64,000 nt of DNA from Notolepis coatsorum (Eukaryota > Chordata > Actinopteri > Aulopiformes > Paralepididae), in contig OZ020589.1 in NCBI GenBank assembly GCA_963971535.1, forward strand, positions 48,790,312 to 48,854,311, written 5' to 3'. The translations under genes and the position numbers were made by a program. Below, in pieces: positions 6,806 to 61,749 of this stretch. The stretch's first letter is position 1. The number at the start of each line of letters is the position of its first letter. A model generated the notes under the pieces. That model was not told where the DNA came from, ran no database searches, and was given only the letters and a program-made list of their open reading frames with translations.

Positions 6806-6845
6806 GTTAGGTTATGACTATAACCAAGTTCTGTTAGTATAGCGA

Positions 6846-6994
6846 CGCTCGGCGTCACTCTCTGCACTGTCCTCGCACACGTGCACGCGCACTGAATAAA
6901 GACCACAATGTACCTTTAATCCCAATATTTGTCTGACCACACCCCTATCAGCTTACCCATATAAGCAGGGGTGGGGCCACCCACTCGCCTCCTT
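6846..6994 (+). repeat. DIRS copy 1 inverted terminal repeat, left
   Basis: 149 bases that are the reverse complement of 12147-12295 with very few differences; includes gtgcacgcgcactgaataaa. Confidence 0.88.
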
Positions 6995-7029
6995 CCCAAG
7001 CTTTCACCACAAGGCGAGATCAAGGGCTG

Positions 7030-7115
7030 CAGCGGCGTCGGACGCCGAGCGTCGCTATACTAACAGAACTTGGTTATAGTCATAACCTAACGTTCTGTAT
7101 CGTATAGCTCTCGCT
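7030..7115 (+). repeat. DIRS copy 1 internal complementary region
   Basis: The reverse complement of the left outer end (through ttggttatagtcataaccta) is joined to the reverse complement of the right outer end (gttctgtatcgtatagctc). This is the expected junction of the circular intermediate of DIRS elements. Confidence 0.85.
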
Positions 7116-8288
7116 CTGCGTCACTCTCTGCACAAGGGAGGCCGAGCGAGAGCCATCGGCCGACAAATGCACCCCGCTGAAAGCCCCCCACAACCATCAG
7201 AACAGGGAGGGCCGAGCCCCCCCGACACCCCCTAATGGAGGGCACCCCCCCTATTGGGGGCTTCACGGGAGGGCGACGGACCCGACCGTGCGAAGAGGCA
7301 CTCAAGCAACTCAACGCACAGGGTGAGCAGACCGTGGCTTGACCCCACGACTACACACACGCACAACCCGCATGCCACCCGGGAACGAACGGAGGGAACA
7401 ACCTCGTTACTGCCCCCAGAATCACGGGGTCAAGGGCAAACCCAACCCTGTGGCAAGGCCGTAGCAGCGGAGCGTGAAGGAAGACCCAGACCCACCAAAG
7501 GGACTGGACCCCCTGGAACGGGGGCCCGGAGAAGTCCATGATGCCAGCATCAAGACCCCACCAGGTGGGCACTTAGTGACCCCGCCCCCCACATCGCCAG
7601 CGTATTCGGACAAAGGCCCCTCAGCCGAGCGGGCCCTGTCCCCCCAATAGTACACCGCCTGGCACACTGACCCTGCAGAACAGGCAGTCAGCATGGCCGT
7701 AAGCACACAAAAAAGGTTAACCAACGGAAGCAGGCAGCGCACCGGGGAAAAACCAGGCAACAGGCTGTTAACCCTAGCCTGGAGACTGCGGACGAGACAG
7801 GCGCCAGAGGGGACAGCTGAACACAGCCGCCCCGGCGGAAGGGGCGTATGCTGGCGTTGTTGCATGACCAAGCCTCCATTTAAAAACCCCCACCCAGAGG
7901 GGTTGAGGCAGAGAAGGCTGACACGATTGGCAGACGTCATGAACATGCAGGGGCACCCTCAACCGGGTAACCCGGGAGTTGACACTGCTCCAACACACCA
8001 GGGAATCAACCACCTTGGTGTTACCCAATGCGGTGGTTGTTCCTATAACCCCTCAAGAAAAAACTCCAAAACACACCTGCGGGTATACACCGGCTATACC
8101 GCAGTACAAGTGTTTCAGTTTTCAAAAAAGGGTTAACCCAGGCCTACGGGTCGACGAAACATGACTTCGGACCGGGCCCGGCGATACGGGAAGCACAGGG
8201 TCACCAGAGGAGGTCAAAGACCACCCCAACAGGCCCCTCTTCGCCATGCGTGAGAGAGGAGCGAAAAAGAATGGAGAACCAGCCCCAA

Positions 8289-8405
8289 GCACACCGTACT
8301 TGGTATTCCCAGGCGGTCTCGCAACCAAGTACTAACCAGGACCAACCTGTGTAGCGGCCGAGATCTGACGAGATCGAGCGTGTACAGGTTGGCATGGCCG
8401 TAAGC
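8289..8405 (-). ncRNA. 5S rRNA-derived sequence inside DIRS copy 1
   Basis: Read on the - strand this follows vertebrate 5S rRNA from gcttacggccatgcc through gatctcgtcagatctcgg to ggttagtacttggttg and cctgggaatacc, over nearly the full length. The middle (box A region) is diverged, so it is 5S-derived and not a normal 5S gene. It is sense to the element, as in copy 2 (48227-48347). Confidence 0.88.
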
Positions 8406-11083
8406 CATTACGACAGTGCTGAGTAAAAAATTTACCCAACCAGGGTCTCCATAGCGCTTAACCCTGTGACACCCGGACCGACCTGGCATTTTTCCCCCTG
8501 AAAAAAGCCCAAGTCCCTCAGGGTACCAGAACAGCAGATCTGCATCCCCGGCGGACAACGGGTTCAACTGATCCGGACCAGCGTGACCAGAACCAGTCCC
8601 GTGCCCTAACCACGCCGACATGCCTACTCCAGGAGAAGGGGCAGATATGCGTGTTGATCTTAAACATGAAAAGAAGGCGCCACCCAGACGTTCGGGCGAA
8701 CCGCGCCCGGTGGCCCACCCCCAGGGCGTGAGACCCCTCTACATATGTTCAGATCCATTCCGTCATCATCCCCCAGATATGAACGAGAATCCGTCGATAA
8801 CCAAACCAGGTCGTCGGATTTGGTCGTCGGAAGAGGAAAAACCTCCATCCCAGTTGCTTTATAAAAACGCCGTTTTAACCTCAAGCAACCAAGGCGTGCC
8901 AGTCAGTCGCCTGTTTACAGAACACCCCGAGCTAGCACTATACGTGCGTCGGGACACACCCACATCAATGAACAGGCTATTTAGACCTGTTATTGAATCC
9001 CCAAGGCGCCCAGGGGAACGACAAGAGGGGTGTGACACTTCCTAACTCCAACTCTTTTTAATAGAAAAGCAGGAAGCACCAACAGTATGTATCCCAGTCT
9101 ACACAGCCGGGGGTAAAAATTGTTCACATTTTTACATCCCACCACCCTCCCATAGGAAGGAGACGGGAATCCCCAGAGAGACTTCCCACGCGAGCTGTAC
9201 AGATTGAAAAGAATATATTGCACCTTGAGCCATGTAAAAAATTGGTTTTAGGGCTCTCCGGGGAGGAGGCACTGAACCCATACACACTCAATAATCGAAT
9301 TGAATCGAATACATACACAATAGAGTAGGACTCCTTCTTGAGGGTCCACTCACCTTGACAATCTGAGGAGGAGGCTCTGTACTCTGAAGGAGGCTCCCTC
9401 ACATGGAAGGAGGAGTCCCAACTCACAGAAGGCCCGAATAGGAGCTTGGTGAGGAGGAGCCCTGACCACCCCCCGAAACAGATCCATCACATGGACCTGA
9501 ACAGCACACGGAAGTCCTACCAACAGAGACGTGCACGGTGACGTACTCTATGGCGGGGGAATTTCTGCGGTGCACACGCCCAATATTCCAGGCCGTGGGA
9601 CCAGGAAACCCCCCCCCCCTCACCCTGTAACGTGCCGAACCGCAACGTGACAGGAACCTTGAAGGACAGGTGGGTTTACCCCTGACCAACAGAAAAAAGG
9701 GGAAGGAAAGGTTACCAGTTCACCCCTTTACGACCCCACACCCATGATACGATGTAATGACAAAAAGAGAGTATGACACAGTCATAGTCGGCTCTATGAA
9801 ACGTCTGACAGCTTCACACAGCGCATGAGCTAACCTGCTATCTGATTTTTACTAAGGAAAAAACACAGAATAGAGAGGGCTCTCCAAGAGCCCCGGTACC
9901 AAACTTACACATGTGCTTCTGTGGCCAGTCCAACCCAGTTGTAGGTCACATGACACACACAACCCATCATCACCTACAAAAAATGGCAAAAACACTCTAC
10001 AGAGGAACGCCGTTTTTCATAATGAGAGAATACATAATTCTCGATTAGTATCGGCCACAGGCCTTGCTAAGCACACACGAAAGCGACCAAACAATTTTTT
10101 CTTTTAGGAAAATAAAGTTTCTCCAGCAGTTTTAGCACAACCTCAGCAATCAAGCTAAGGGTTACATCGTATCCCTACCACACAGTGACACAATGTAGTG
10201 CAACAACATGTCTGAAAGGAGGATGAAGAAGTCCCCAGGGAACCGGGGGGAAACACAATCCTCCTACTTTACCCTTAATACGGCCAGTTAAAACAGGAAA
10301 ACCTGTTAATATGTGAACACACTGTTCATTGTCATTACAGGCTGAGAAAAGAATCATTCTTTACTCATTTGTCACTAAGCATAGCTTTATAGGTTAGTTA
10401 ACCCCCTTAGTTGTGAGTACACGGTACATATAAACACACATGATGTTTCTCAACACAACAAACCAGATCATTTTCACATCTGTAACAACAACCCGATTTG
10501 CATGGAGAAGCTAAATACCAGTGACAAGACAATTCACACATAACTCGCGTCGTATCCTAAATGTAGTGCAGCAACACTCGTTTTGGAAAACATCGTTATT
10601 TACATAACATTTAGAAGGGAAAGCCAGAAGAAGTGTACAAGGTCTGGCCAAACCTTGCCTACCCGGAGCGTAGATCAACGAAGTGCAGTCTCAAGGCACC
10701 GTAGTAAACACAGCCGTTCTGTGTTGCCGACCCGGCCAGCGTCGCTGCTCCAACCCGTCGCTACGGTCCCCTTTGTTGACGCAGTCCTTGCCGTCCTGGC
10801 TCAGGGCAGGGTCGACGAACATCCTCTGTCAAAGATGACGTCGTAGTCAAGAGTGTTTAAAACATGTTATAATCAAAGCACGTTCAACAGAGTAGCATTA
10901 AGCTAACGGCCGCTCCAACCGTCGGTCGCTACCGCCCCTGCCCGCGAGACGCAGAGCGAACGGCGCACGCGACCAGAGGGAAGCTTCGAATCCCCCCCGC
11001 CTCTCCCCGTGAGGGAGAGGGGAGTTGGGAACCGCGGCGGCGCGCGAGGGGCCGGAGCCACCCCGCGCTGGGCCTCGGCCGAT

Positions 11084-11335
11084 AGCAGCAAGCTAACGTT
11101 TCCTAGCCTAGCCAGGTAGGCCACCTAGTGATCACAGCAGGCTAGCGCTGCAGCTAACAGCTGACTGGCTAACAGTAGGCCACCACTAGCACGTAAGCTA
11201 AGCAGCGACAGCAGCAAGCTAACGTTTCCTAGCCTAGCCAGGTAGGCCACCTAGTGATCACAGCAGGCTAGCGCCGCAGCTAACAGCTGACTGGCTAACA
11301 GTAGGCCACCACTAGCACGTAAGCTAAGCAGCTAT
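11084..11335 (+). repeat. 126-bp tandem duplication
   Basis: Two near-identical units starting agcagcaagctaacg at 11084 and 11210, rich in gctaac/ctagc motifs. It lies inside DIRS copy 1, in the part not shared with copy 2. Confidence 0.92.
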
Positions 11336-12146
11336 CACCTGAACTTGTACACAATGATATAACACTCACCCAGACAGGCCGCCGTTCTGAAACCCTCCTC
11401 ACTTTTTAAGAGAAAAGAGAAACAAGATGTCAACACAGTTTTACAACGGTGATTTTACCAACACCCGACGGAGCCAGCACAATACCCAACTGGCCTGTGT
11501 AGCTGACTTTGAACACAGATCTTCCGCTAATGAACATCTATGCCCATATCTCCTCGTGAGGGAATACTCTCATTTGGATATGAAAGATGGGGCCTAACAC
11601 GGTGACAGAGAGACATCCACTCGTCCAGAAAACACAGGGATCACCAGTGTTAATGGTCGTGGCCCACTAGTTAAACTATAATGGGCTTCAGACCAAGGTC
11701 TTCTGTCGCCTAGGAGGCTGAACAAAGGACCCTAGTCTGGGGCCGGTTTTCATAAACATTGTCAACTAGCCCCCATAGCACTAACAGACAAGTGGAGCTT
11801 GCCAGCAAAACATAACTCACCAAACCTGGAACCCACCGCTTCTCACAACAGCGGCGCGTCCTACAGCCCAGCTGTGTCTTTACCGCAACCAGCACACAGC
11901 AAGGACTGCAGTTGGAAAGGCATGTAGCGGCGCGAACTCCCAATACGAAAACCGGTGGAGGATTTTTAGAATGATCATCATCTTCCAGACACTCCAGTAC
12001 GAAGACAATATCGCCGTATTTTCTCAAATAGTGAGAGAGAAAATAAAGATATGATGTCAACGTATCCTTGTTTTCCAACTCTTCTCCTACCATCACATCA
12101 CTTCAAGTGGGGATCTACCGAGGCACTTCCTTGTGGTGAAAGCGAG

Positions 12147-12295
12147 AAGGAGGCGAGTGGGTGGCCCCACCCCTGCTTATATGGGTAAGCTGATAGGGGT
12201 GTGGTCAGACAAATATTGGGATTAAAGGTACATTGTGGGCTTTATTCAGTGCGCGTGCACGTGTGCGAGGACAGTGCAGAGAGTGACGCCGAGCG
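12147..12295 (-). repeat. DIRS copy 1 inverted terminal repeat, right
   Basis: Partner of 6846-6994, same length of 149 bases. The few bases beyond it (gagctatacgatacag) are those copied in the internal complementary region. Confidence 0.88.
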
Positions 12296-12312
12296 AGAGC
12301 TATACGATACAG

Positions 12313-35310: not shown

Positions 35311-37196
35311 TTAACTCATTCACGGCCGGCCGTTCTATCCATCCTTGTACTCAATGGGCCCCCGCTGTAACAGATAGGGATTTTCACTGTGCGTCGCAGT
35401 GTTTGCAGGGCTATATCTATAAACGCGGGGGCATTTTCATAGGCACAGGGGGCAGCATTACATTTTTTTTTTTAAATATTATAGTGAAATATTTTGCACA
35501 GTTGTCGCATTTATCTTGTTGAAATCCTCCCACAGGTTCTTTTTACTACCACATATTTAATTGAGACCCTTTATTTGTTTATTATTTCAATTTAGCTGGA
35601 AATACATTGCTACATCATTCAGTAACATTTGCAGAGCCTTATAACAAAAACATTATTACGGTCGGTCACCATTGTGACCAGTGGGATTAATCAACACATT
35701 TTATTATTTATTTTTCTATTTCATTGAACATTGCACATGTTAAAAGCAATTTTTTTTACTCAAAATGTGAGTATTACCAAGTCAACTTGTGTTCTTAAAA
35801 CAATGACAATAAACATAGTTTTATTAGGTTGAAATAATGTGGTTGTGTACTTATTTTTCTGTTAACTTATTATGGATTGAAAACTGAAAGCCTTAATGCA
35901 CAGTAATTGAACTCAATATTTTTAAGTTCTGGTAACTTATTATTATTTCTTTTTTTTACCGTGTAGTCTTGCGATCAATCAAAACTTATTTACACGATAT
36001 ACCTCACATTCACCCTCCATTCACATCCTGGTGTTCTCCATTAGGCCTGTAGGTGGAGCTATGACAGCACACGTACAGTACACACACCGATGGTGTGTGA
36101 TGTGTCCAAAAATGAATGGGCAAATGTGAGTGAAATGGTCGCACTGTATGCAGCTGTTTATCTGCATTGCATTCCCCCCCTCCCCCCCCAACTCAGATTT
36201 AGGGTTGATACAACCTTCATAATAATATTGTTAATAATAACAATAACAATAATGATGTAATAATGTAAAAATTATCATTAAAAATACCTGATTATGAGAA
36301 AGAAATGTACGGTGCATGGAATATTGTTGAGGCACACTAGTTACAACTATATTTCAAACGGGCACTCCATGTCAAAAAGGTTGCTGACCCCTGTTCTATA
36401 TTATAGCTATGGAGACAATACTATGGCTCATTTGACATTAACTATCCCTCGTTCAACATGTGAAAAAGAATAAATTTGTTCATGTGTACGTTCGTGTGTT
36501 ATACCATGGTGAATATTGTATAGTTTCAGAGTGATCCTGGCTAATTCCTGGTAACTGTTATGGAGCGATATGCGAATTTTGCTAAAAGCGTTCGCGTTGC
36601 TCGCCTGGACACGCTACTATTTCCAAATCAAAGGTATATAATAGGTATTATGTTTCATCATGAATGCATGAAAGGGAGGGGGGGCATTTTTTTATGCTTT
36701 GATCGTCAGCAACGGCATACGTTTTGGAGTACGTTACATATTATGATTGTTGCGATCGATGTGAAATCATTGTTGGATCAAAGTAGGCTTGATGTCATAT
36801 AGTCCTTACCTTTACTAGGAGGTATCCCAAAAAGAATATTCCAATTGTCTGATCACAATTTCCAGTATCGATGTCGATCGGGTCCTGACATGAAGTGGCA
36901 CAAGATATGCCTCAAGTGTGCTGAACGCGCTTCGACGTGCCCAGATGAAGCGATTTACTTGGCTTGGTCTAAATTCTCCACCCGGACGAAATTAGATGTG
37001 ACACACAGTGTGAAATAAGGTTTCAAAGGGTGGGCGATACTGCCACCTAGCAGGATGCGACCGGTATTGTGGCCTGTAATGAATAAAAAAATCGAATAAA
37101 AGAAAAAAGGATAAAAAAACTAGTTTACTCGTCTTTGGCACTCAACGCATGACGGCCAAAAACGAGTTAACTCGTCTTTGGCGCTGAATGAGTTAA
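35311..37196. mobile_element. piggyBac-like MITE, TTAA target, with nested hAT
   Basis: The ends are ttaactcattcacggcc and ggcgctgaatgagttaa. Removing one TTAA copy restores L1-type reading LYTLLIKSTYKNVSLDTVW across the junction. The net length without the nested hAT (35446-36393) is about 938 bases, the same as other members of the family. Confidence 0.9.
35446..36393. mobile_element. hAT element copy 2, left end damaged
   Basis: 948 bases closely matching the flanks of 29507-31841. The right end is ggttgctgacccctg; the left end is altered after cagggggcag. No matching target duplication was found. It shows the site without the nested TIR element. Confidence 0.85.
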
Positions 37197-42423: not shown

Positions 42424-42949
42424 AGCCCTGCTGTTGTGTGTTGGTGTGTGGATGCTGCTGTGTGTAGGTGTGTGGATGGTGTGAGTGTGTGTGTAGGTGA
42501 GTGTGTAGGTGTGTGGATGGTGTGGGGATGCTGTGAGTGTGTGTGTAGGTGTGTGGATGGTGTGAGTGTGTGTGTAGGTGAGTGTGTAGGTGTGTGGATG
42601 GTGTGAGTGTGTAGGTGAGGGGATGCTGTCAGTGTGTGTGTGTAGGTGTGTGGATGCTGTGAGTGTGTGTGTTGGTGAGTGTGTAGGTGTGTGGATGCTG
42701 TGAGTGTGTAGTTGTGTGGATGGTGTGAGTGTGTAGGTGTGTGGATGGTGTGAGTGTGTAGGTGTGTGGATGGTGTGGGTGTGTGTGTAGGTGTGTGGAT
42801 GCTGTGAGTGTGTGTGTTGGTGAGTGTGTGTGTGTGTGTGGATGGTGTGTGTGTGTAGGTGTGTGGATGGTGTGAGTGTGTGTGTAGGTGTGTGGATGGT
42901 GTGAGTGTGTAGGTGTGTGGATGGTGTCAGTGTGTAGGTGTGTGGATAG
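42424..42949. repeat. Minisatellite (gtgtaggtgtgtggatgg family), left part
   Basis: Imperfect units of about 20-40 bases built from gtgtggatggtgtgagtgt. It continues at 50185-50535 after the nested insertions. The long His/Thr-rich ORF on the - strand is an artefact of the repeat. Confidence 0.9.
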
Positions 42950-44399
42950 TCAGGGTGGGAATCACCAGTTTCATCACGATACGATACGATATCGATTCTT
43001 TGGACAACGATACGATATTTGCCGATATCACAAAGTCTGCCACGATACGATACGATTAGATTAGATTCAGGTGCCTGCGATCGATACGAGACGATATTAT
43101 GTGCCCATTTAACACAATCAGTCACATTTAGATCTAAAAAAAGGCTACGGAAATATCAATTGACGTTTTTATTTTTGAGCTCTTCCAGACATTTAAATGA
43201 AAAACAATCTATTGTTTTTAATACAAATATACCTCCTGTTCACTGTAAAGTGCCACGTTTTTATATATTGAGCTTTAAACTTTAAGTAAAATGTTTTGGA
43301 ACTCACAACACGCAACCTAAAACCCCTCCCTCTCCCAAACTGTTCCTACAATTGTTTTATGTTGCATGATGATCATGAATACATTTATTATGTATTAATG
43401 TTTAAATATCAACATTATCTGTCCATCCTCAGTAAATAATATCAATATAATAATACTCCTGACTTCATCTGGTCTTTTCAAACGCACACACAGAATGCCC
43501 CTCCCCCAGTCCCCACACACAGAAAGGTAGAATGCCCCCCCCCCCTCCTTCCCCAGTCCCCTCTCCTGTTCTCTCACGGTTAGGTGCTTAGCTTAGTTAG
43601 CTTAAGCAGCTAACGTAACGTTAATTTAGGTCTGCCCACGCGACGTGGGCATAAAGGAATGGCGACGATGCAAAGCATGTTAGATGCATTTGACCCGTTG
43701 CGGGGAAAAAACTGCACATACTTATATCGGGTCACAAAATAGGCGCTCTGTAGCCCTGTTCTGCTGTACAGAGCTACACGGCGTTTCACACTACTGGGCA
43801 GATACGACTCGCCGGATTTTCAAAATAAGAGTATCACAATATGAATCGATCTTTTTATGTTGCATCGATCTTATTTGATTATTGATAATTAGGGGTGGGA
43901 ATCACCAGGTTCATCACGATACGATACGATATCGATTCTTTGGACAACGATACGATATTTTCCGATATCACAAAGTCTGCCACGATACGATACGATTCGA
44001 TTCAGGTGCCTGCGATCGATATGAGATGATATTATATGCCCATTTAACACAATCAGTAACATTTAAATAAAAAAAAAGGCAATGGAAATATCATTTGACA
44101 TTTAAATTTTTGATCTCTTCCAGACATTTAAATGAAAAACAATCTATTGTTTTTAATACAAATAGACCTCCTGTTCACTGTTTTTGGTTCGTTTTTCTTT
44201 TTTTTCTCCGATATTAATATCCTATCACAGCGCTGTATTTTGGCTGGAAAAGGCATATTGGGAGTCAGAAGGTGCAGTACCGGCCAGATCCAGTTAGTGG
44301 GGCTATCTCGAGAATGCAGTAACCCCCCCTCCTTCCCAGTCCCTAGTTTCTCTCTATCGCTCCATCAGCTTAGCTTAGTTCTGTATCATTAGGGGATCC

Positions 44400-44536
44400 G
44401 CTTGGCATCACTCATGCACTCCCTCGCGTACGTGCACGCGCACTGAATAAATTCCACAAATGTACCTTTAATACCAGTATTAGTCTGACCACACCCCTCA
44501 TCAGCTTACCTTCATAAGCAGGTGTGTGGTCACCTG
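44400..44536 (+). repeat. DIRS copy 2 inverted terminal repeat, left
   Basis: Reverse complement of 49610-49746 over 137 bases; includes gtgcacgcgcactgaataaa, shared with copy 1. Confidence 0.92.
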
Positions 44537-44682
44537 CTCTCCTTCTCGCTTTCACCACAAGGAAGTGCCTCGGTAGTACCCCACTTGACGTGTTGATTAG
44601 TTGAAAAGAGTTGTGACAAGTCTACATTGTGCTTAATTTTTTCTTCTCTCATATCTGTTGTAAAGAAAAAGTTTGGGTCATA

Positions 44683-46362
44683 ATGTATTCTGCGGAGAGT
44701 AGACCCGCTAGACCTACTCTTCACCAGCGGTTCTCCATTCCCGCCTCCGTCGTGCGTTCTGGTGCTGGGCTGTTGCCACTTTCGTGGTTGCCGACCCAGC
44801 CCAGGAGACAGCCGATGGATAGTTTGCCTCTCCGAAGAGCCGAGGAGTCGGTGCCGTCGCTCCGGCGATGGCCTGATCTCGACTCTGGTTCCTCTGGTTC
44901 CAGGGAATCGTCCGTTGGTGAACGGTCGGTTGTTTTGGAGCCGGAGGATTTGCGACGCAAACTTTTCGTGTCTGCCCGTTCACGTCGCAAGATGGTAGCA
45001 TGCAGGCGCGAACGGCCTGGGTTTGGGGAACTGCTGGAGACCAGTGAGGATGCGTCCGGCTCTGGATTTCCGATGGAAACTGAGGACTTCATGGAAGAGG
45101 CGGACGGATTCTTGTATGATGGTCCCGTGGAGGAGAGTATCCCTCTTATCCAAGAAACACCGGAGGGGGGAGAAATGGCTCCATGGGACTCCCTGTTCGA
45201 GGATGTCGAGGAACCACCTTGGCCTCATCAGCAGGATGCCCTACTATCGGCCACATCAGACTGTGGCTCCTTGACCAGTTGCAGCCTGCTGCATGTGAGG
45301 GATGCGGGTTCGGTGGAGGAAGGTCCGCAGGGGGAACTGCGGGCTTTGTTTCCCGAGCTCATGGCGGTAGCCGCCGCCGCAAACGGCGTGCCGCTGCCGC
45401 TGCCATTGCCTGCACCTGTCCCTGATGATCTCATAGGTCATCGCTGGCAGCGTCGCCCAGTGAGAGGGGTGGATGTTGTCTACCCATTTTTCCCATCAAT
45501 GGGGGCCTATGTTCGTCAGGGTCAGGCGGTTGCCAACATCATGGGACTAACCCCCGCCTACGTACCAGTTACGCGGGTGTCGGGGTTAGTCAAAGGTATG
45601 GGGGAGGGCGTGCCTCGGCTTGACAGTCCGATGGCCGCTCTCCTCTGTCCGGATATGGTGTGGGAACCCTTATGCAAGCCGGTCCTCCAGGGTAAATCGG
45701 CTAGGCGATTGGCATATTGGGGTGACCAGTCATTCATCGCTGGTACACAATCGCTGGCTGCGGCGTCTAACATCGCCCACCTGGCTAGATTTGTATCAGG
45801 GATTATGACGGGCGGCACGGATCTGAACGAGGTAAAATGCGATCAGATCACCCAGGCGGCAGGAGCTGTCCTGCACCTTTCCCAGGTGCTGGCCATAGCC
45901 ATGGGGAAAAGTGCGCGCCCTGGCTACCCTGGGCCAGCGTCATCTTTGGCTGGAGCAGGCCCGTGTGCCGGAACGGAAGAGAGCCCCTCTTCTGACGGCC
46001 GCCCCCTCTCGGACGCTGGTCTGTTCGGGAAGGCCCTGCGGTTGATGACCTCAACATGCAGAGAGATGGCAGAGGAGAGATCCATCCTCCAACCCCATTT
46101 TCCGCCTCCCGTCCTTGCCGGTGGAGTCAGAAGGCTTCCGCGACGTCGAGCTGTCTCCGTCGCCCCTACCACTGCCTCCGCCGCCGCTGCTGGCCCCTCC
46201 AAGAAGACCAGGAGAAGAGACGGCGCTTCTGCTACCGCCGGCCCATCCACGACCGGAGGAGACGGTAGGGAACGTCGTGACCAGCAGACAGTAACCTACC
46301 GTCCCTCCGGGGCTCCTCGGGGTGGCAAGACTCGAGCGGCGCGAGGTGGCAGATGCCGCTGA
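44683..46362 (+). CDS. DIRS gag-like protein, with a compensated frameshift
   Basis: 559 residues from the Met of MYSAESRPARPTL; an earlier in-frame ATG at 44629 is less likely. The C-terminal part resembles DIRS-type Gag of fish: LHLSQVLAIAMGK, then GLFGKALRLM and a basic, Pro/Ala-rich tail ending in RGGKTRAARGGR. Between about 45908 and 46005 the conserved segment QRHLWLEQARVPERK is in the next frame (ALATLG just before it), while the reported frame gives unrelated residues (PGYPGPASSLAGAG). Two offsetting indels therefore replaced a conserved stretch without closing the ORF. Gag would coat the element RNA. Whether this version still functions is unknown. Confidence 0.75.
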   Translation: MYSAESRPARPTLHQRFSIPASVVRSGAGLLPLSWLPTQPRRQPMDSLPLRRAEESVPSLRRWPDLDSGSSGSRESSVGERSVVLEPEDLRRKLFVSARSRRKMVACRRERPGFGELLETSEDASGSGFPMETEDFMEEADGFLYDGPVEESIPLIQETPEGGEMAPWDSLFEDVEEPPWPHQQDALLSATSDCGSLTSCSLLHVRDAGSVEEGPQGELRALFPELMAVAAAANGVPLPLPLPAPVPDDLIGHRWQRRPVRGVDVVYPFFPSMGAYVRQGQAVANIMGLTPAYVPVTRVSGLVKGMGEGVPRLDSPMAALLCPDMVWEPLCKPVLQGKSARRLAYWGDQSFIAGTQSLAAASNIAHLARFVSGIMTGGTDLNEVKCDQITQAAGAVLHLSQVLAIAMGKSARPGYPGPASSLAGAGPCAGTEESPSSDGRPLSDAGLFGKALRLMTSTCREMAEERSILQPHFPPPVLAGGVRRLPRRRAVSVAPTTASAAAAGPSKKTRRRDGASATAGPSTTGGDGRERRDQQTVTYRPSGAPRGGKTRAARGGRCR

Positions 46363-47448
46363 GAGTGACTTTTCCCCTCTGTGTCCCCTCTCCTTTACAC
46401 CCTCCCCGGCCCCTCTATGATTTTGTGCCTTAAAACAACTTATGATAATAAAGAAGTTCCCCGACATAAGGGGGACTATGTTTTGGCCGAACAAACTGTG
46501 TTTCTTCAACAAATCATATGGTGGGGTTGTGTAAATATGAATCTGCACTTTTACGTTGTGAGATGAGTCGTGTTGTGATACGAGATTAAGCAAGGTCTGC
46601 AACATACACTCAGTAATAGGTTCTATTAGCTTGACGCTCCACATGCAGGTAGAAACTGGTGTTATTCCATTGCTTGAACGAAGTATATGTGTCTCACAAT
46701 GCTGTGTTGTTAGTTGCAGTAATACTCGTACACACACGTTCCACGGCCTAGTCGTTACTCTCGGTCAGCGTTTTTTGCTATGTACGACATAGTCAACGGG
46801 TGTAGGATTCACACACATGCGACTTGTTTTTGTTGTAAATCCTGTTCACATTTTGTGGGTAGCGGGCATTGTATTAGCTTATGCTATACATTAGCATTCT
46901 ACCGGAGGTTTTCAAAATGGCTACGGTTGTTTCTGTGTGTAGGGAATGAAGGGTTTTTTGTGAGGGGGTGTCGAATAAACCCCTCCTTCCCACTTGATTG
47001 GTTTAAGGGATTTTTATCTCTTCTGCTGAGCCAGTCAGGGCCGAGCCGGTGAGACGTCTTGGCAGGGGGGGGGGGGGGGGTTATCCTGCCAACTCCTATT
47101 ACAGAGAGGAGCCGGCAGAATTTCCCCCCGTCATAGCGGTGTTGCTATGGCGACGCCTTCCATGAGTTACGGTGTCTTAAGGTGTCGAGTTAGAGCGTAG
47201 GGCTCACGGGTCTGCTGCGCTCGATTTATGTGTAAACTTGAGTCAGTTGGTCACGTGACTCACAGTTTGCATGCCTTTCTCATGACTACCACTCGTGTGG
47301 GAAGGTTTTCTGGGAGGGTCTAGTCTTTACTCTCTGATTAAAGAAGAGTGACTGGATGTAAAATCATGTGAAAACGGGTTTTTTACTCCCAGCTGTGCAG
47401 TTGGGTTCATACGGGTGATGCTTCTTCTTTATTATTATAAAGAGTTGG

Positions 47449-47604
47449 ATGTGTCTAGATGAATTGGAAATGGGGGCCCCTGATGGAAACAAGACTAATG
47501 TCTTTCTCAGGTCTGCCTCCCCTTACCGATTGTGTGTTTTGAGCCGTACTATGTTGTACCCTTTCTGCAATCTGTTGGTTAAAGTTTTCATTCATTCATT
47601 CATG
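47449..47604 (+). mobile_element. Truncated LINE 3' tail (same family as 1-2798)
   Basis: It matches the 3' end at about 2640-2798 (cctgatggaaacaagac, gtctttctcaggtctgc) but ends in attc repeats. TSD gagttgg at 47442-47448 and 47605-47611. It was inserted into DIRS copy 2 after that element arrived; copy 1 has the empty site near 9050. Confidence 0.87.
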
Positions 47605-48226
47605 GAGTTGGTTGCATCCCGCCCTCTTGTCGTTCCCCTGGGCGTCTTGGGGATTCAATAAGATGGTCTAAATAGCCTATTATTGATGTGGATATGCCCA
47701 ACGCACACATAGTGCTAACTCAGGATGTTCTGTTGGACATTAGGTAACTGACTGGCGCGCCTTGATTGCTTGGGGTTAAAACAGCGTTTTTATAAAGCAA
47801 TCGGGATGGGGGTTTTTCCTCTTCCGACGCCGTGTGGTTGTCGACGGGTTCTCGTTCATATCAGGGGATGATAACGGAATGGATCTGAACATATGTGGAA
47901 GGGTCTCACGCCCTGGGGGTGGGCTGCCGGGCGCGGTTCGCACCGGAACGTCTGAGTGGCGCCTTCTTTTGTTTAAGATCAACACGCATATCTGCCCCTT
48001 CTCCTGGAGTTGGCATGTCGGCGTGGTTAGGGCACGGGACTGGTTCTGGTCGCGCTGGTCCGGATCAGTTGGACCCGTTGTCCGCCGGGGATGCAGATCT
48101 GCTGTTCTGATACCCTGAGGGACTTGGGTTTTTTCAGGGGGAAAAATGCTAGGTCGGTCCGGGTGTCACAGGGTTGAGCGCTATGGAACCCTTGTTGGGT
48201 ACATTGTATTCTACTCTGTCGTAATG

Positions 48227-48347
48227 GCTTACGGCCGTGCCAGCCTGTACGCGTCCGATCTCGTCGGATCTCGGCCGCCATGCAGGTTGGTCTTGGTTAG
48301 TACTTGGTTGGGTGACCTCCTGGGAATACCAAGTACGGGGTGCTGGG
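48227..48347 (+). ncRNA. 5S rRNA-derived sequence inside DIRS copy 2
   Basis: Near full-length resemblance to 5S rRNA: gcttacggccgtgccagcc, gatctcgtcggatctcgg, ggttagtacttggttggg (box C region) and cctgggaatacc. Box A is diverged. A TTTT at 48353-48356, a few bases after the 5S-like 3' end, could serve as a pol III terminator. Sense to the element and at the same relative place as in copy 1. Confidence 0.9.
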
Positions 48348-49476
48348 GCTGGTTTTCCATTCTTACGCTCTTCTCTTAAGCATGGCGAAGAGGGGCCTGT
48401 TGGGGTGGTCTTGACCTCCTCGGGGGACCCTGTGCTCCCCGTATCACCGGCCCGGTCCGAAGTAATGTTTCGTTTGACCTGTAGGCCCGGGATAACCCTG
48501 TTGGAAACTGGAACACGGGCTGCGACAGCGCAGGTGTGTTTTGGTTTTTTTTCCTGTGGGGTTATGGGACCAACCACCGCATGGGGTGACACCTGGGTGG
48601 TTGGTTCTCTGGTGTATTGCTGCAGTGTCAACTCCCGGGTTAACCGGTTTGAGGGTGCCCCTGCACGTTCATGACGTCTGCCAATCGTGTCAGCCTTCTC
48701 TGCCTCGACCCCTCTGGGTGGGTTTTTTTTAGATGGAGCCTTGGTCATGCAACTACGCCAGCATACGCCCCTTCCGCCGGGGCGGCTGTGTTCAGCTGTC
48801 CTTTCTGGCGCCTGTCTCGTCCGCAGTCTCCAGGCTAGGGTTAACCGCCTGTTGCCTGGTTTTCCTCGGTGCGCTGCCTGCTTCCGTTGGTTAACCTTTT
48901 TTGTGTGCTTACGGCCATGCTGACTGCCTGTTGCAGGGTCAGTGTGCCAGGCAGTGTACTATCGGGGAGGACAGGGCCCGCTCGGCTGAGGGGCCTTTGT
49001 CCGAATACGCTGGCGATGTGGGGGGCGGGGCACTACGTGCCCACCTGGTGGGGTCTTGATGCTGGCATCATGGACTTCTCCGGGCCCCCGTTCCAGGGGG
49101 TCCAGTCCCTTTGGTGGGTCTGGGTCTTCCTTCGCGCTCCGCTGCTACGGCCTTGCCACGGGGTTGGGTTTGCCCTTGACCCCGTGATTCTGGGGGCAGT
49201 AACGAGGTTGTTTCCCTCCGTTCGTTCCCGGGTGGCATGCGGGTTGTGCGTGTGTGTAGTCGTGGGGTCAAGCCACGGTCTGCTCACCCTGTGCGTTGAG
49301 TTGCTTGAGTGCCTCTTCGCACGGTCAGGTCCGTCGCCCTCCCGGGAAACCTCTAATAGGGGGGGTGCCCTCCATTAGGGGGGGTCGGGGGGGCTCGGCC
49401 CTCCCTGTTCTGTTGGTTGTGGGGGGCCTTCAGCGGGGTGTATTTGTCGGCCAGTGGCTCCGCTTGGCCTCCCTGT

Positions 49477-49551
49477 GTGCATGAGTGATGCCAAGCGGAT
49501 CCCCTAATGATACAGAACGAAGTTCTGTTAATTAGGGGTGACGCTTGGCAT
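49477..49551 (+). repeat. DIRS copy 2 internal complementary region
   Basis: 49477-49518 is the exact reverse complement of the left outer end including GTT. 49522-49551 is the reverse complement of the right outer end with one difference. Confidence 0.93.
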
Positions 49552-49609
49552 CCGACGCCGCTGCAGCCCTTGACCTCACCTTGTGGTGAAAGCTTGGGTA
49601 GGAGGAGAA

Positions 49610-49746
49610 CAGGTGACCACACACCTGCTTATGAAGGTAAGCTGATGAGGGGTGTGGTCAGACTAATACTGGTATTAAAGGTACATTTGTGGAATTTATT
49701 CAGTGCGCGTGCACGTACGCGAGGGAGTGCATGAGTGATGCCAAGC
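49610..49746 (-). repeat. DIRS copy 2 inverted terminal repeat, right
   Basis: Partner of 44400-44536, identical length. The segment outside it (gtcacccctaattaac...) is the end copied into the internal complementary region. Confidence 0.92.
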
Positions 49747-50184
49747 GTCACCCCTAATTAACACAACTTGGTTATAGTCATAACCTATCGTTAGCTCACG
49801 CTAACGTTAATTTCGGTATTTAAATTAAAAGGGGCATAAAGGAATGGTGAGGATGGAAAGCATGTTAGATGCATTTGACCCCTTGTGGGGAAAAAAAAAC
49901 AACAGGCACTTGTTTCGGGCAAAATAGGCGGACTCTGAAGCAATGCTGTAACGTCTACACACGCTGAGCTGCGCTGAGCTACTGTTGTTGCAGCCGGGCG
50001 GATATGCTCACGAGGGGATTTTCAAAATAAGAGTATCGCAATATGATCGATCTTTTTACGTTGCATCGATCCTATTTGATAATTGATAATAGATCGATAT
50101 ATCGATCTGGATCGATGTATCGTCCCACCCCTATTGATAATAGATCGATATATCGATCTGGATCGATGTATCGTCCCACCCCTA

Positions 50185-50535
50185 GTGGATGGTGTGAGTG
50201 TGTGTGTAGGTGTGTGGATGGTGTGGGTGAGTGTGTAGGTGTGTCGATGGTGCGAGTGTGTAGGTGTGTCGATGGTGCGAGTGTGTGTTGGTCAATGTTG
50301 GTGAGTGTGTGGATGGTGTGAGTGTGTAGGTGTGTGGATGCTGTGAGTGTGTGTGTAGGTGTGGGGATGGTGTGAGTGTGTAGGTGTGTGGATGGTGTGA
50401 GTGTGTAGGTGTGTGGATGGTGTGAGTGTGTGTGTAGGTGTGTGGATGGTGAGTGTGTGTGTTGGTGTGTGGATGGTGTGGGTGAGTGTGTAGGTGTGTG
50501 GATGTGTGTTGGTGTCGTGAGTGTGTAGGTGTGCA
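50185..50535. repeat. Minisatellite, right part
   Basis: Continuation of the array at 42424-42949. Confidence 0.9.
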
Positions 50536-50808
50536 TCAGTAAGTTGTTGAAATGTTGCTCCCTATACTGTTTTAACTAAACTCTCCCTGTACGTTCCTTT
50601 TATTTCTCAAACGATGCCTTTCTGATTTCCCCTTGTGCTAAATACAGGCATGCAGAGGTCATAAATGAGTGCACTTTAAACCATGTGATGAGGAAAGTTA
50701 TCTTTACATGGCCCAAGGACAAGTGGTCCTACAGTTCTGAAGGCTGCGTCACTCCTTATGTAATGTATAGAATATAATTGAATAGAATATCACCTTGCTA
50801 GTCCATTC

Positions 50809-57226: not shown

Positions 57227-58186
57227 TTAACACTTTGGTTGCCTTGGGTTAAATTAATGATATACCATAGATTGCCAGCGCTATTTGTCTATGGAGAAAG
57301 TCCCCTTCTTTGCAGGGCTATAACTTTTTAAATTCTATTGCTACATTGCCATTATTAGGGCCCATTCAAAGTCCTATATGTATTGTTCATTGTGTAGCAA
57401 CGTTAAACTTTTTCATTCACATATTCATAGTAAAGTATGGTCTAATGTATAAGTATGTTTTCATCTCTTTCTGCAACTTTCTCCAGAACGTGATATATAG
57501 CCCCAAATGCATTATATTGATGATGAAATACAGTTTGATGGCAATCAGCGCGATATAAAAAATTCCAACTAGACGTACTTCTAGAAGTTACTACACGTCA
57601 TCTGATGTTGACCGGATGGGCGAGGGGGCGTTTATAATTCCGTGGGCAGCGTTATACCAATCATCTAATGTGGGTCAAATGTTGATAAAAGCAGTTAGTA
57701 TCGAAGATGGTAACGTTACACGCTGAAACTCACCCCAGTCTCCGCGCGCCGTTGGGCGATCATCGTCGAGTAGAAATTTTATCATTATGGGATATATTAT
57801 TACCCGGTCCATCTCCAGCTTGTATAATGGTATATACGTCCAAATCATGTTGTTTATCGAGTTATTGGCAATCGATCGCTATGTAGAGTGACGAGCTAGA
57901 GTGCCGGAAGCTATACCGAGTGTCCGGAAGTAATAGGGCCGACCAGCAAAACCTCTACTGCGCTTCCTGTTAAGCAGTTGCGCCGATCGGCCACCAGATG
58001 GCGCTCGTGAACCGCCAGAGAGCTCAGTGGGTCCTGCTGATGGATCTCAGGCCAGCGGAGGGGGAATATGAATCCGATTCCAGATTTTTGAAATATTGAT
58101 ATAAGGACGCTGTACAGCGTCCCCCGGCAACTTTAGCATGGCCAGCAATGACGCTGTAAAGCGTTTTTAGGCAGTCAAAGTGTTAA
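57227..58186. mobile_element. piggyBac-like MITE, second subfamily
   Basis: Ends ttaacactttggttgcctt and aggcagtcaaagtgttaa with TTAA. The interior (tccagaacgtgatatatag, ccaccagatggcg) matches 62956-63890 in reverse orientation. Confidence 0.9.
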
Positions 58187-58801
58187 CATTACGTTATCAA
58201 ACATAGGGACGAAGACTGTAAAAAAAAGTGTCGACAATGTTTTATAATCTTTATGTTAATTTATCATAAAAAACTGGCTCGCCTGAGTATTTAAACCCCA
58301 CCCGCCCGGCTCAGATTGGCTCCTAAAACACACCAGCCCATTTTCAATGAGATGCAATAGCTCCATAAGAGAGCGCGGGGTTGACCGTCTGCCAGCTCAG
58401 GCAGGGTCTGAAGGGTATACCAGAGGCTGCAGCTATGAATTATGAATATATATAGCGAATAAACGAAATAACGACCCCAAAAACGAGTTAAGTCGTTTCT
58501 GGCGCTGAACGCATGGCGGGCAATAACGAGTTAACTCGTTTCTGGCGCAGATTGTGTTAAACATAAATGACACAGTGGTCACCATTTCAAAGGGAGTTTA
58601 TTTACTTTGTGACACAATAGGCAAACAAATGCACTAGCCATCAATATCGTATGCCAAATTATTAGGGCATAGGGCCTATTACAAAAAAATAAATAAACTG
58701 TATTCAATTAACAAGTCAGAGTCCGAATGCAGTCAATGCTCGAGTCCAAGTCCGAGTCATCAGTGCTCAAGTCCAAGTCGAGTCACGAGTCCTGAAAATC
58801 A

Positions 58802-59228
58802 GTCCAGGACGCGTGAATACTTTGGGCAGCCGAAGAGTGCTTCCGCGTTCGAGTTTTGCGCTCCGTTTGGCCAGGTCATGTGACATGTGCGCCAATCGTG
58901 GGACAGCAAGTTCTGCGCCTATTTCCGGGTCTAACAGCCTGCAAACTGCCTGGCGTGATATTCGCCATGCTCTAAGACAAACTCTAACCGTAACCAACTT
59001 CGAAAGAGTGCCTAAGCTTAACCGTCGGAATCAGGGCAGGCGTTCTATCGCCATGCTCTAAGACAAACTCTAACCCTTAACCAACTTCGAACGAGCGCCT
59101 AAGCTTAACCAGTGTAGAAACGTGCGGTCCCACGATTGGGCGTACATGTCACATGACCAGAAATGACCTGGCCAATCAGAGACGCGGAAACACTCTTCGG
59201 CTGCCCAAAGTATTCAGGCGTCCAGGAC
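58802..59228. mobile_element. MITE with about 45-bp TIRs
   Basis: Ends gtccaggacgcgtgaatact and its near reverse complement up to 59228 (agtattcaggcgtccaggac). The interior contains an imperfect direct duplication (ccatgctctaagacaaac at about 58967 and 59051). Target duplication unclear. Lies in the right arm of the hAT at 51061-59252. Confidence 0.8.
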
Positions 59229-59260
59229 TCGGACTAGAGTACTACAACACTGGAATGTGG

Positions 59261-59328
59261 AGTGAGTGAGTGAGTGAGTGAGTGAGTGAGTGAGTGAGTG
59301 AGTGAGTGAGTGAGTGAGTGAGTGAGTG
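59261..59328. repeat. (GAGT)n microsatellite
   Basis: 17 near-perfect tetranucleotide units immediately after the hAT target duplication. Confidence 0.95.
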
Positions 59329-59351
59329 CGTGTGCATATTCAGTGTCTCAC

Positions 59352-59507
59352 CGCTGTCTTGGCTGAAGCCCTCGTGGCTGATCTTGCGGAGTCGCTCAAA
59401 GCCCTGGTTCAGGCCTCTCATCTTCACCTTCAGCTCTGTGTGCTTCTGCTGCAACACGTGCTCCTTGACCTCACCCTCCAGGGGAGAAATCACATTCTCA
59501 TGGACCT
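59352..59507 (-). CDS. lrpap1: lrpap1 exon (end of domain 2)
   Basis: 156 bases, phase 1 in and out; acceptor ctccatag and donor AGCG|gtgaga on the - strand. It encodes VHENVISPLEGEVKEHVL, then HTELKVKMRGLNQGFERLRK and ISHEGFSQDS. This matches the vertebrate RAP segment around HENVISP and HTELK. The exons for the signal peptide, domain 1 and the first part of domain 2 are not visible and should lie beyond the right edge. Confidence 0.94.
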
Positions 59508-61749
59508 CTATGGAGATGGACAGAGAGGGAGGAGAGAGGAGAGGAGGCAGGTTAGGAGATGACACGCAAGGGTAAAGGGTAGGAGGGGAGGGGGAAAGGA
59601 CAAGAGGGAGATTGGGAGAGAACAAAAGAAGGTAAGGAGGATAGGGAGAGAGGAGGATGAGGAGGAGAAGAAGGGGGACAGGCAGAGTGATGAAGCCATT
59701 TGGATGAAGAGGACAGAGATAACGAGAGGAAGTAAAAATAAGCAGACAGAATGATAAAGAGTAGAGCACAGCGAGGGAGACGGCGACTTCTCAGCTCACT
59801 ACTTCGGTGATGATAACCACAAAATAACTAATAAAGCATTGCAGATGACAGGCTTTTATTTTGAAATGTCATGTAATTTGTTTTATGGCAACAGCTCCGC
59901 TTTTGTCATTAGAAAAGGAGACGTTACGGAACGCAAATAGAGACGCCTGGCGCTGAACAGCTGCAAAATGTCAGTCGGGTCCACTGGAAACATGTCTATC
60001 CTGCCTCGCTCTACCTGAAACACTGGAGATACACCGCCACCTATAGGTAAATAGGTTCCGTGGGTGATAGCATGAGCTGTCTGACAGCCTACCTAAACCA
60101 GGATGGGCTGTGATTCACTGAGGAGGCTCGGACAGAGAACTGGCGATAATTATCTCTGGCAGGTGGTACGTGTCCGTCTGTCTGTCTGTCTGTCTGTCTG
60201 TGTGACTCTGTCCAGAGCTAATCTCGCAAACTACAGGCCAGATGTGGATGAAACATCCCATGTAGGCTGACCTGAATACTATATCGGTCTACAACAAGTA
60301 TTTAATTTGAATTTATTTCCATCATTGTCCATTGAAATAGTATTCAGTATAAAGTAATACCTTTTGAACACAAGAGGGCGCTACTAGATAGCAAATAATT
60401 TAAGTTAATATTGTGTTGTCAGAACAGTCTTGTGTTTGCAATGCGCTTTACAATTTATGCCTCACATTCATTTCACTCACATGCCGACGGCAGAGACAAC
60501 CATGCAAGGTGCCAACCTGCTCATTGGGAGCAGTTGGGGGTTATATGTCTTGCTCAAGTACACTTCAACACGCTGCTGGGAGGAGCCGAAATCTAACCGG
60601 GAACGTTCCGATTACGACAACCGCTCTATCACCTGAACCACTGTCTCCCCCATCTAATGTTGATTATTGCCTATTACTAGGCCACCGTCATCTGATCAAC
60701 CAGGAAATGCTCACATGAAACCTAGTTCTATGCGTGAAACTCGTATTAAAATAGTGATCTATCTATGCCAGTGATCTTTGCGTGAACATTTAAAAAGAAA
60801 TCAGCAAATATCTTAGTTACAACAACATTGTGTAACTAAGCAGGGTTGTGATTATAGGTATTATAAGTATTTACAATGTTCACTGTTTGGTGGAGCAAGA
60901 TGGCTGCTCTGGCCAGAAATCACATCACTCTCAGGGCTACACTGCGACTGATGACTTGGCTGTGGCTGCATTTATCCGTTGTGTCTAACCGCTGTGTCTG
61001 TTCGTCTAAGGTGTCGGTTACACACAGGGGTATTTTCATTTCGTTTCGTTTTCAAGATCAGTTTCGCTTTCCAGAGCGCAACGTAGTGGCAGGCGAGTTA
61101 GACATTTGTTTTGCGACCTGAGCACTTTCGTTTTGTCAGAACGAGGCGTGGTCAGACCGCAACGAATCGCGTCTCGAATTCAGCACTGAGCATGCGCGGG
61201 GAGGTAGTTACCTGCGCACAAATCCTGAGAGCACATACACGCCTCACACGTCCACGGGTAAACAACACAGCTATCGACCACAATATGTAGTACAATGCCA
61301 AAGCAGTAGGTGGCAGTAGGTGGCGAACATGAAGGCAATTTTCAACCAATCAGAAGTTAATAATAATAATAATTTAGGACCTGCTCAGAGGTCATTAATC
61401 GGCATGCATGCGATGCATGTATGCGTTTCGTCTCTGCGATTAACCCATCCCCGTCGTCCTTCCCCCCCAAGGGCAGCCGGGAGCAGACAGGCGTCAACGT
61501 GAGCCGCGCCAGGGGACCAATCCAAGTGCTCCCGTCAGTCTTCGTCAAGGACGCCACAGCGTTAGCGATCTTGTTGTTGTGCATGTTTTTCCATTGGGTT
61601 TATCTTATCAGGGGGGGGGGAACCCTTGCGAGCACGGGGAGAACATGCAAACTCCACACAGAAAGGCCTGGGAGATACCCCACCTGGGTAACTGGTATCA
61701 TGGAATGTGCCAATACACTTCCTGCAAAAAAATCAACAAGCCACTATCT
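59508..61749. other. lrpap1 intron: microsatellite, SINE, repeat fragments
   Basis: A (CTGT)n run at about 60175-60203. A - strand SINE at about 60425-60651 is related to the one at 6692 (tRNA-like head at its right end, gttgcctctgcc-like middle). A fragment gagaacatgcaaactccac at about 61641-61659 is a motif common in fish repeats. An AAT run lies near 61360. No coding exon recognised. Confidence 0.6.

What the first reader, a model, noticed from the sequence alone, without database searches (positions are those of the whole stretch)
44378..49792. DIRS-type elements that carry a 5S rRNA-derived sequence
Two copies (here and 6806-12312) share the full DIRS architecture: equal-length inverted terminal repeats, an internal complementary region made of the complements of both outer ends, and GTT insertion without a long duplication. 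Both carry a near full-length 5S-like sequence, sense to the element, inside a shared block of about 1.9 kb that encodes no recognisable RT or recombinase. 5S capture is known for SINE3 and for plant Cassandra LTR elements; I know of no description in a DIRS element. An internal pol III promoter, a way to enter the nucleolus or 5S RNP, or simple passenger capture are all possible. In copy 2 a TTTT follows the 5S-like 3' end within a few bases.
Basis: partly seen in the sequence, partly recalled or inferred. Interest (0 to 1): 0.88.

Follow-up and report, generated by a model that had tools for sequence, protein, structure and literature searches.

The report
Retrotransposons that captured 5S rRNA twice
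A very large family of DIRS-type jumping elements in this animal genome carries copies of the cell's own 5S ribosomal RNA, acquired on at least two separate occasions, apparently because the copying enzyme slipped from the element's RNA onto 5S RNA and back.

Summary
Both window copies are DIRS1-like elements (inverted repeats, internal complementary region, GTT insertion) and carry a full-length, sense 5S-derived sequence (5S-A, 61-62 bits). No RT or recombinase domain was found, so they are non-autonomous; copy 2's family has a selected gag-like ORF. The 3.4-Gb host genome holds 7,930 exact matches to a 22-nt 5S-A signature. The surprise is a second, younger, independent 5S insert (5S-B) 0.7 kb downstream, at one exact site that is empty in both window copies: 2,817 exact left joins. 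The best 5S-B is 116/119 identical to the host's 5S genes, starts at nucleotide +1, ends in a T-run after the 5S 3' end, and shows no target duplication; element and 5S share GCT at the join. This fits reverse-transcriptase template switching onto 5S rRNA and back. A pol III promoter or 5S-RNP role is not shown: 5S-A is no more conserved than its flanks within the copy-2 family, and deleted 5S-B forms have multiplied; a hint of constraint at positions 67-106 remains. Seven full-text searches found no earlier 5S capture in a DIRS element.

The parts
44378..49792 (+). Copy 2: non-autonomous DIRS1-like element with gag-like ORF and 5S-A
   Evidence: 17 near-full places in the genome incl. itself; the 16 others at 94-98% (capped list)
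44378..44562 (+). Copy 2 left inverted terminal repeat, begins GTT
44680..46359 (+). Copy 2 gag-like ORF; this copy is out of the family frame between about 45.91 and 46.01 kb (two small indels); a 580-codon frame is open in 10 of the 20 sequences compared
   Evidence: the name gag is inferred, no Pfam match
47450..47602 (+). SINE-like insert (83% to 2635-2788); SINE is inferred
47621..49474 (+). Non-coding 3' block shared with copy 1
48227..48344 (+). 5S-A in copy 2 (first 5S capture), 94/118 to host 5S gene L066
48976..48995 (+). Empty site of the second 5S capture (5S-B) in copy 2
48641..49345 (+). Most conserved long stretch between copies 1 and 2 (19/701 differences)
   Evidence: part after the B site 1.7-4.2% between subfamilies
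49475..49552 (+). Internal complementary region, copy 2
49579..49789 (+). Right inverted repeat plus right extension of copy 2; GTT follows
6806..12312 (-). Copy 1: DIRS1-like element without gag, with 5S-A
   Evidence: 6 full-length places incl. itself at 98-100% and many partial (capped list); no gag by tblastn
8288..8405 (-). 5S-A in copy 1, 100/118 to host 5S gene L066
7615..7634 (-). Empty site of 5S-B in copy 1
7041..7133 (-). Internal complementary region, copy 1
60474..60636 (+). Paralogous empty site for the insertion of copy 1
43560..43720 (+). Paralogous empty site (single GTT) for the insertion of copy 2

Best explanation
These are members of a large family of non-autonomous DIRS1-like retrotransposons. 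Twice, while element RNA was being reverse transcribed, the enzyme switched onto a molecule of host 5S rRNA, copied it to its 5' end, and switched back, leaving a full-length sense 5S sequence inside the element. The first capture (5S-A) predates the split of the subfamilies seen here. The second (5S-B) happened later in one branch, at an exact site that is still empty in the two window copies, and has since been eroding. The captured 5S sequences are then copied mainly as passengers of a 3' block that the elements need for other reasons. Shown: DIRS ends, single origin of 5S-A in the copies compared, independent 5S-B with empty site, sense orientation, no target duplication, exact-match counts. 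Inferred: template switching as mechanism, mobilisation in trans by an autonomous DIRS, passenger status.
For: Full-length 5S-A in both copies; 11 identical changes from the host 5S in four 5S-A subfamilies (L030, L050, c2, L052) = one capture. 5S-B: in 8 of 10 element ends sampled (two of them only as a remnant), in L042 (remnant) and in L070; the site is empty in c1, c2, L030, L052, L055 and in 18 of the 20 further copy-2-family copies, the other 2 having no readable site. 5S-B in L070 differs from the majority of seven host 5S genes at 3 of 119 nt, starts at +1 and ends GCAGTAAGC-TTTAAT; host genes read GCAGTAAGCA-TTTT. It carries the host state at 10 of the 11 positions fixed in 5S-A (not A119T), so it is not a copy of 5S-A. 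Join: empty CGCTCGGCTGAGG, filled CGCTCG-GCTTACGG...: GCT is shared by element and 5S 5' end. Sense orientation fits a jump during minus-strand synthesis; same-orientation RNA in LINE-1 chimeras is ascribed to template switching or RNA ligation (PMC13174262, passages). Passenger: within the copy-2 family (20 sequences) 5S-A diversity is 0.039 vs 0.020/0.019 in the 100-nt flanks and 0.025 overall; without CpG 0.021 vs 0.018/0.011; a 13-nt deletion of 5S-B is shared by L043/46/59 and one of about 70 nt by L042/53/61, so deleted forms move. No Pfam domain; tyrosine-recombinase frames exist elsewhere in the genome (18 hits).
Against: 5S-A positions 67-106 (IE to just past box C) carry fewer changes than the rest in the better-kept subfamilies (L030 1/40 vs 16/79, p 0.011; L050 2/40 vs 19/79, p 0.010; c2 p 0.056; L052 p 0.17; positions changed in all four p 0.058), as a retained TFIIIA site might; the region was picked after seeing the data. 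In the three pairs with L052, 5S-A diverges less than the 550 nt downstream, though about as much as the 110 nt upstream; in the other three pairs it does not differ clearly. Helices II and III of 5S keep all or all but one of their pairs in both window copies, as in the recalled fish 5S. Retention in 9 of 10 sampled ends, and two captures in one 0.8-kb stretch, both sense, could mean selection. The empty site of 5S-A is unknown, so its mechanism is by analogy. RNA ligation instead of template switching is not excluded. The autonomous partner was not identified.
Confidence: 0.62

Rival explanations
1. The 5S sequences are functional modules: element RNA uses the 5S fold or the TFIIIA/L5 binding site to enter 5S RNP pathways (nucleolus, oocyte storage particles), or the internal promoter makes a small pol III RNA.
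For: Retention: 9 of 10 sampled ends; the 5S-A start is found, with up to 3 errors, in 22 of 22 elements of the two window families examined (c1, c2 and 20 copies); 39 of 47 rE pairs have the exact 22-nt 5S-A motif. Fewer changes in 67-106. Helices II and III largely kept. Two captures, both sense.
Against: No lower diversity than flanks within the copy-2 family; between copies 1 and 2 the 5S differs more than the rest of the block (14/118 vs 116/1724, p 0.041). Fold energy of 5S-A not exceptional against random mutation of a recalled fish 5S (137/1000, 78/1000 and, for the shared changes alone, 772/1000 as good) and only moderate against shuffles (6-16 of 200 as good, z -1.5 to -2.0); pairs kept 1486/5000 and 320/5000; helix I keeps 6 and 5 of 9 pairs. 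5S-A lies about 70% along the element and is followed by T-runs, so a pol III transcript from it could not be a full-length template. Deleted 5S-B forms amplify.
Confidence: 0.2
2. 5S pieces entered as DNA: a LINE-mediated 5S retropseudogene or SINE3, or a repair patch of 5S rDNA, landed in a genomic element copy that later multiplied.
For: LINE frames in the window; SINE3 is known (PMC10886601, part 1 of 6 read).
Against: No target duplication and no A-rich tail at 5S-B with the empty site known; nothing but 5S between the joins, so no SINE body; boundaries are those of the RNA, not of the rDNA unit (host 5' flank ...gttatttc and 3' flank ttttgcacag absent); no duplication at 5S-A.
Confidence: 0.13
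3. 5S-B is a partial duplication or conversion of 5S-A inside the element.
For: Same element, same strand, 664-709 bp apart.
Against: 5S-B of L070 carries the host state at 10 of the 11 positions fixed in 5S-A; full-length forms (L050, L058, L070) match the 5S genes at about 95-97%, deleted forms at 90-95%, 5S-A at 76-86%.
Confidence: 0.02

Closest known systems
DIRS1-like elements of teleosts (GaDIRS1, GaDIRS2, TnDIRS1a; PMC3266345)
   Same: GTT start, AAC circular junction, conserved ITR 144-148 nt, right extension 26-27 nt, ICRs of 36-57 nt, length 5.3-5.9 kb (section 10 read).
   Different: No RT, RNase H, methylase or recombinase found; one family has only a gag-like ORF, another none; a non-coding 3' block with one or two 5S-derived sequences.
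Cassandra (plants) and Ajax (nemerteans), 5S-bearing TRIMs (PMC10886601)
   Same: Non-autonomous retroelements with an embedded 5S-derived sequence.
   Different: There the 5S is in the LTRs, elements are under 1 kb, and in Cassandra it starts the RNA; here it is internal, in a 5.4-kb tyrosine-recombinase-type element.
SINE3
   Same: 5S-derived sequence in a retroelement, also known in fish (recalled).
   Different: Here no LINE tail, no target duplications; spreads as part of a DIRS.
5S/LINE-1 chimeras (PMC13174262)
   Same: Retroelement cDNA joined to 5S rRNA.
   Different: Those are 5' fusions, 5S typically antisense and truncated, 20 of 27 with 7-17 bp duplications (passages); here full-length, sense, internal and multiplied to thousands.

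Membership tests
DIRS1-like retrotransposon | Inverted terminal repeats | tested here: met
   180/185 and 177/184 identical
DIRS1-like retrotransposon | Internal complementary region matching both outer ends, with a right extension | tested here: met
   copy 2 has lost about 19 nt of the right ICR
DIRS1-like retrotransposon | NTT ends, no target duplication beyond the 3-bp junction | tested here: met
   20 of 20 copies begin GTT, 14 also end GTT (L020 a 15th by eye), 5 cut short or different; direct repeats outside GTT 0-3 nt
DIRS1-like retrotransposon | Encodes gag, RT/RNase H(/methylase) and tyrosine recombinase | tested here: not met
   No Pfam domain in 3 sense frames of each copy; gag-like ORF only in the copy-2 family. 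Hence filed as a non-autonomous DIRS1-like derivative, not as a full DIRS1-like element
SINE3 | 5S head at the 5' end, LINE-type tail, target duplications | tested here: not met
   5S internal; no duplication
Cassandra/Ajax (TRIM with 5S) | LTRs holding the 5S, length under 1 kb | tested here: not met
   Inverted, not direct, terminal repeats; 5.4-5.5 kb
RT template-switch insert | RNA-defined boundaries, sense, microhomology, no duplication | tested here: met
   5S-B; for 5S-A the empty site is unknown
Functional pol III 5S promoter | Conserved box A, IE, box C | tested here: inconclusive
   box A has 4-6 of 15 positions changed; 67-106 less changed in some subfamilies; box limits recalled
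Functional pol III 5S promoter | Transcription by pol III | not testable with these tools
   no expression data

The most novel reading that the evidence does not exclude
5S rRNA is a regular companion of DIRS reverse transcription (packaged or co-located in the same RNP), and elements that carry a 5S module gain from it, for example by entering TFIIIA/L5 5S-RNP traffic in oocytes; repeated capture into the same 3' block of a family with thousands of copies is the footprint of that selection.
Probability: 0.2. Interest if true: 0.9.

Novelty: new variant of a known kind. Interest (0 to 1): 0.74.

Why it matters
How DIRS elements replicate is poorly known. A captured cellular RNA with both a filled and an empty state gives a direct record of what looks like reverse-transcriptase jumping in this order, and says which cellular RNA lay near the enzyme. 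It also means that thousands of 5S-like sequences in this genome are transposon passengers; one scores 108.9 bits, within the range of the array genes scored (108.3-116.9), and would be annotated as a 5S gene. And it extends 5S capture from SINEs, LTR TRIMs and LINE-1 to tyrosine-recombinase-type retroelements, making the passenger-or-tool question testable.

Tried and rejected
Second and third 5S pieces inside the window copies: GCTTACGGCCATGC at 48906 looked like a second 5S start, but against shuffles it is not significant (60/500 and 152/500; with fish 5S 110/200 and 90/200) and L052 and L055 lack it. The true second 5S belongs at 48976-48995, which is empty here.

5S evolving slower than its flanks: rejected within the copy-2 family and between copies 1 and 2; weak and mixed between subfamilies. 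Conserved 5S fold: not shown. My first polarity of changes used a recalled fish 5S; after host genes were fetched several 'derived' states proved to be host states, and only the host-based counts are used for origin.

Autonomous partner: the gag search scored 78 of 17186 candidates, all 94-100% identical. Of 10 loci looked at, 9 run on into the copy-2 3' part (7 of these were copies already fetched) and L033 ends in unrelated sequence. PF00589 gave 18 hits, seven with the same 419-codon frame; whether they share these ends was not tested.

Public collections: gag against the protein collection, nothing; patterns in viral contigs (2) and genome contigs (1), nothing; gag against PDB, one hit at E 0.58. 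Rfam on L033/L041: only hits below gathering score, mostly miRNA families in an inverted repeat. Unanswered to the end: the count of empty 5S-B joins, and the patterns GTAATGGCTTACGGCC and GATGCAGATCTGCTGTTCTG in the own genome.
Full report
What was checked. They have paired inverted terminal repeats (180/185 and 177/184 identical), an internal complementary region composed of the complements of both outer ends, and GTT at the insertion point. For copy 2 a paralogous empty site with one GTT lies at 43560-43720; for copy 1 one lies at 60474-60636, where the right-hand GTT of the filled site reads ATT. These numbers match the published teleost DIRS1-like elements (GTT start, AAC junction, conserved ITR 144-148, right extension 26-27; PMC3266345, section 10 read). 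Rfam's 5S model matches both over positions 1-120, sense, 62.0 and 60.7 bits, gathering score 38.

Coding content. No Pfam domain was found at E<=1 in the three sense frames of either copy. Copy 2 has a 581-codon open frame after the left ITR. In 20 sequences of that family (copy 2 and 19 genome copies; L026, cut short, was left out) a 580-codon frame is open in 10; copy 2 itself leaves the family frame for about 100 nt through two small indels. Over 19 of the 20 (L017 left out) pN/pS is 0.46, against 0.77 and 1.14 in the shifted frames, so the protein appears to have been under selection. Calling it gag rests on position and on a recalled DIRS gag motif; no family or homologue was found. Copy 1 has no trace of it (tblastn).

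The host genome. The window's assembly is held: 3.42 Gb, 4787 contigs. That it is a ray-finned fish is inferred from the DIRS ends and recalled repeat types; no call names it. Copy 2 has 17 near-full places (itself included; the others 94-98%); copy 1 has 6 full-length places including itself (98-100%) and many partial ones. Only the best candidates are scored, so these are lower bounds. The right-extension motif occurs 13,339 times (reversed control 2), mostly as ICR/end pairs about 270 bp apart: 47 pairs among the 100 places listed.

A sample not chosen for 5S. I first read the element at the first motif pair on contig C1 (L042) and then 1.4 kb on both sides of the next ten pairs in list order; one unpaired match was passed over. 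All ten pairs have the shared 3' block; 9 of 10 have 5S-A; the tenth (L055) lacks its first ~100 nt but keeps the tail, so it is a deletion. These stretches are too short to judge coding content. L042, read in full, is related to copy 1 (about 85-88%) and has no frame above 216 codons.

The second 5S. Eight of the ten sampled ends, L042 and L070 hold another sense 5S sequence, 5S-B, about 0.7 kb downstream of 5S-A, at a single exact site. Copies c1, c2, L030, L052 and L055 are empty there, as are 18 of the 20 further copy-2-family copies; the other two have no readable site. In L050 and L058 5S-B is 116 nt; in L043, L046 and L059 13 nt are missing; L048 has smaller gaps; in L042, L053 and L061 only a 46-nt remnant is left. 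Against a recalled fish 5S the L042 remnant scored above all of 1000 shuffles.

Host 5S genes and origin. An Rfam search of the genome scored 47 places, in arrays on C29 and C7 plus one on C4. Of eight fetched, seven are array genes with near-identical 5' flanks and TTTT after the gene; the eighth, L070 on C4, is a 5S-B inside an element, which also has 5S-A (L074). L070 differs from the majority of the seven genes at 3 of 119 positions, one of them a variant also seen in two of the genes. 5S-A differs at 17 (L030) to 27 (L052) positions, 11 changes being identical in four subfamilies. So 5S-A is one old capture; 5S-B is a separate, younger one: of those 11 states L070 has one (A119T) and L050 none of the ten it covers.

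Numbers. A 22-nt signature found in 5S-A but not in the fetched 5S genes has 7,930 exact matches (3,992 + 3,938; reversed control 0); neither window copy matches it exactly, so it undercounts. The 19-nt left join of 5S-B has 2,817 (1,399 + 1,418; control 0). On the listed part of C1, 40 of 42 5S-B joins have the 5S-A motif 664-709 bp upstream on the same strand; of 47 ICR/end pairs 39 have the exact 5S-A motif and 26 the exact 5S-B join at the expected distance; of 46 5S-A places below 28.8 Mb 39 lie next to such a pair. The count of empty joins was asked but did not complete.

How it most likely arose. 5S-B begins at +1 of 5S RNA and ends in a T-run after its 3' end (TTTAAT in L070), without rDNA spacer; the empty site shows no target duplication; the element and the 5' end of 5S share GCT at the join. 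This is what is expected if minus-strand synthesis jumped from element RNA to the 3' end of 5S rRNA, ran to its 5' end and re-annealed through GCU. In LINE-1 chimeras same-orientation RNA is likewise read as template switching or RNA ligation (PMC13174262, passages). For 5S-A no empty site was seen, so its mechanism is by analogy.

Does the 5S do anything? Within the copy-2 family 5S-A is no more conserved than its surroundings (pi 0.039; 0.020 and 0.019 in 100-nt flanks; 0.025 overall; without CpG 0.021, 0.018, 0.011). Between copies 1 and 2 it differs at 14/118, near flanks at 9/86 and 10/126 (p 0.45), the rest of the block at 116/1724 (p 0.041), two stretches at 2.5-2.7% (p 3.5e-5). Against that, positions 67-106 hold 1/40 changes versus 16/79 elsewhere in L030 and 2/40 versus 19/79 in L050 (p about 0.01), fading in c2 and L052; the window was chosen afterwards and the lineages are related. 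In pairs with L052, 5S-A diverges less than its downstream 550 nt. Helices II and III stay largely paired, helix I keeps 6 and 5 of 9 pairs. 5S-A cannot serve as the element's promoter in the Cassandra manner, because it is internal and followed by T-runs. Deleted 5S-B variants multiplied. I therefore favour passengers, with a real minority chance of function.

Literature. Full-text searches over the held library listed no paper on a 5S sequence in a DIRS element; subscription papers and Repbase entries were not searched, and most listed papers were seen only as listings. Passages were looked at in PMC10886601 (also part 1 of 6; Cassandra, Ajax; DIRS not mentioned), PMC10138776, PMC7599744, PMC13174262, PMC5753468 and PMC8869645 (Dada transposons targeting 5S genes); none of these passages links DIRS with a captured 5S.

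Noticed in passing
48971-49378: The stretch between the 5S-B site and the ICR is the most conserved part of the element: 1.7-4.2% between subfamilies, against 10-20% just upstream in five of six pairs (in the sixth, L030-L050, both are 3.9%). No Pfam domain there: a candidate cis-acting region, or exchanged by recombination.
   Followed up: partly
L070 (G000:C4:173131664-173131782): A 5S sequence of 108.9 bits that would pass as a 5S gene is a transposon passenger.
   Followed up: yes
16247-20008: LINE-type open frame of 1254 codons with endonuclease and RT domains, no stop.
   Followed up: no
1-1701 and 20842-21711: Further LINE fragments; the second carries RVT_1 plus the ALKBH8_N model.
   Followed up: no
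57227-63890: Long inverted arms (477 nt, 92%, 5.7 kb apart; further arm pieces inside).
   Followed up: no
42437-42982 and 50169-50604: GT-rich minisatellites of 25-29 bp units on either side of copy 2.
   Followed up: no
29546-30113 and 35463-36039: Duplicated stretch, 96-98% identical.
   Followed up: no
11080-11331: 126-bp tandem duplication in copy 1; several genome copies break or vary near query position 1107.
   Followed up: no
genome, e.g. G000:C13:168526-168753: Tyrosine-recombinase domain hits with the same score and a 419-codon open frame in seven places: possible autonomous helpers; link to these ends untested.
   Followed up: partly
46447-46453: AATAAAG shortly after the gag stop of copy 2, a possible polyadenylation signal inside the element (sequence).
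   Followed up: no
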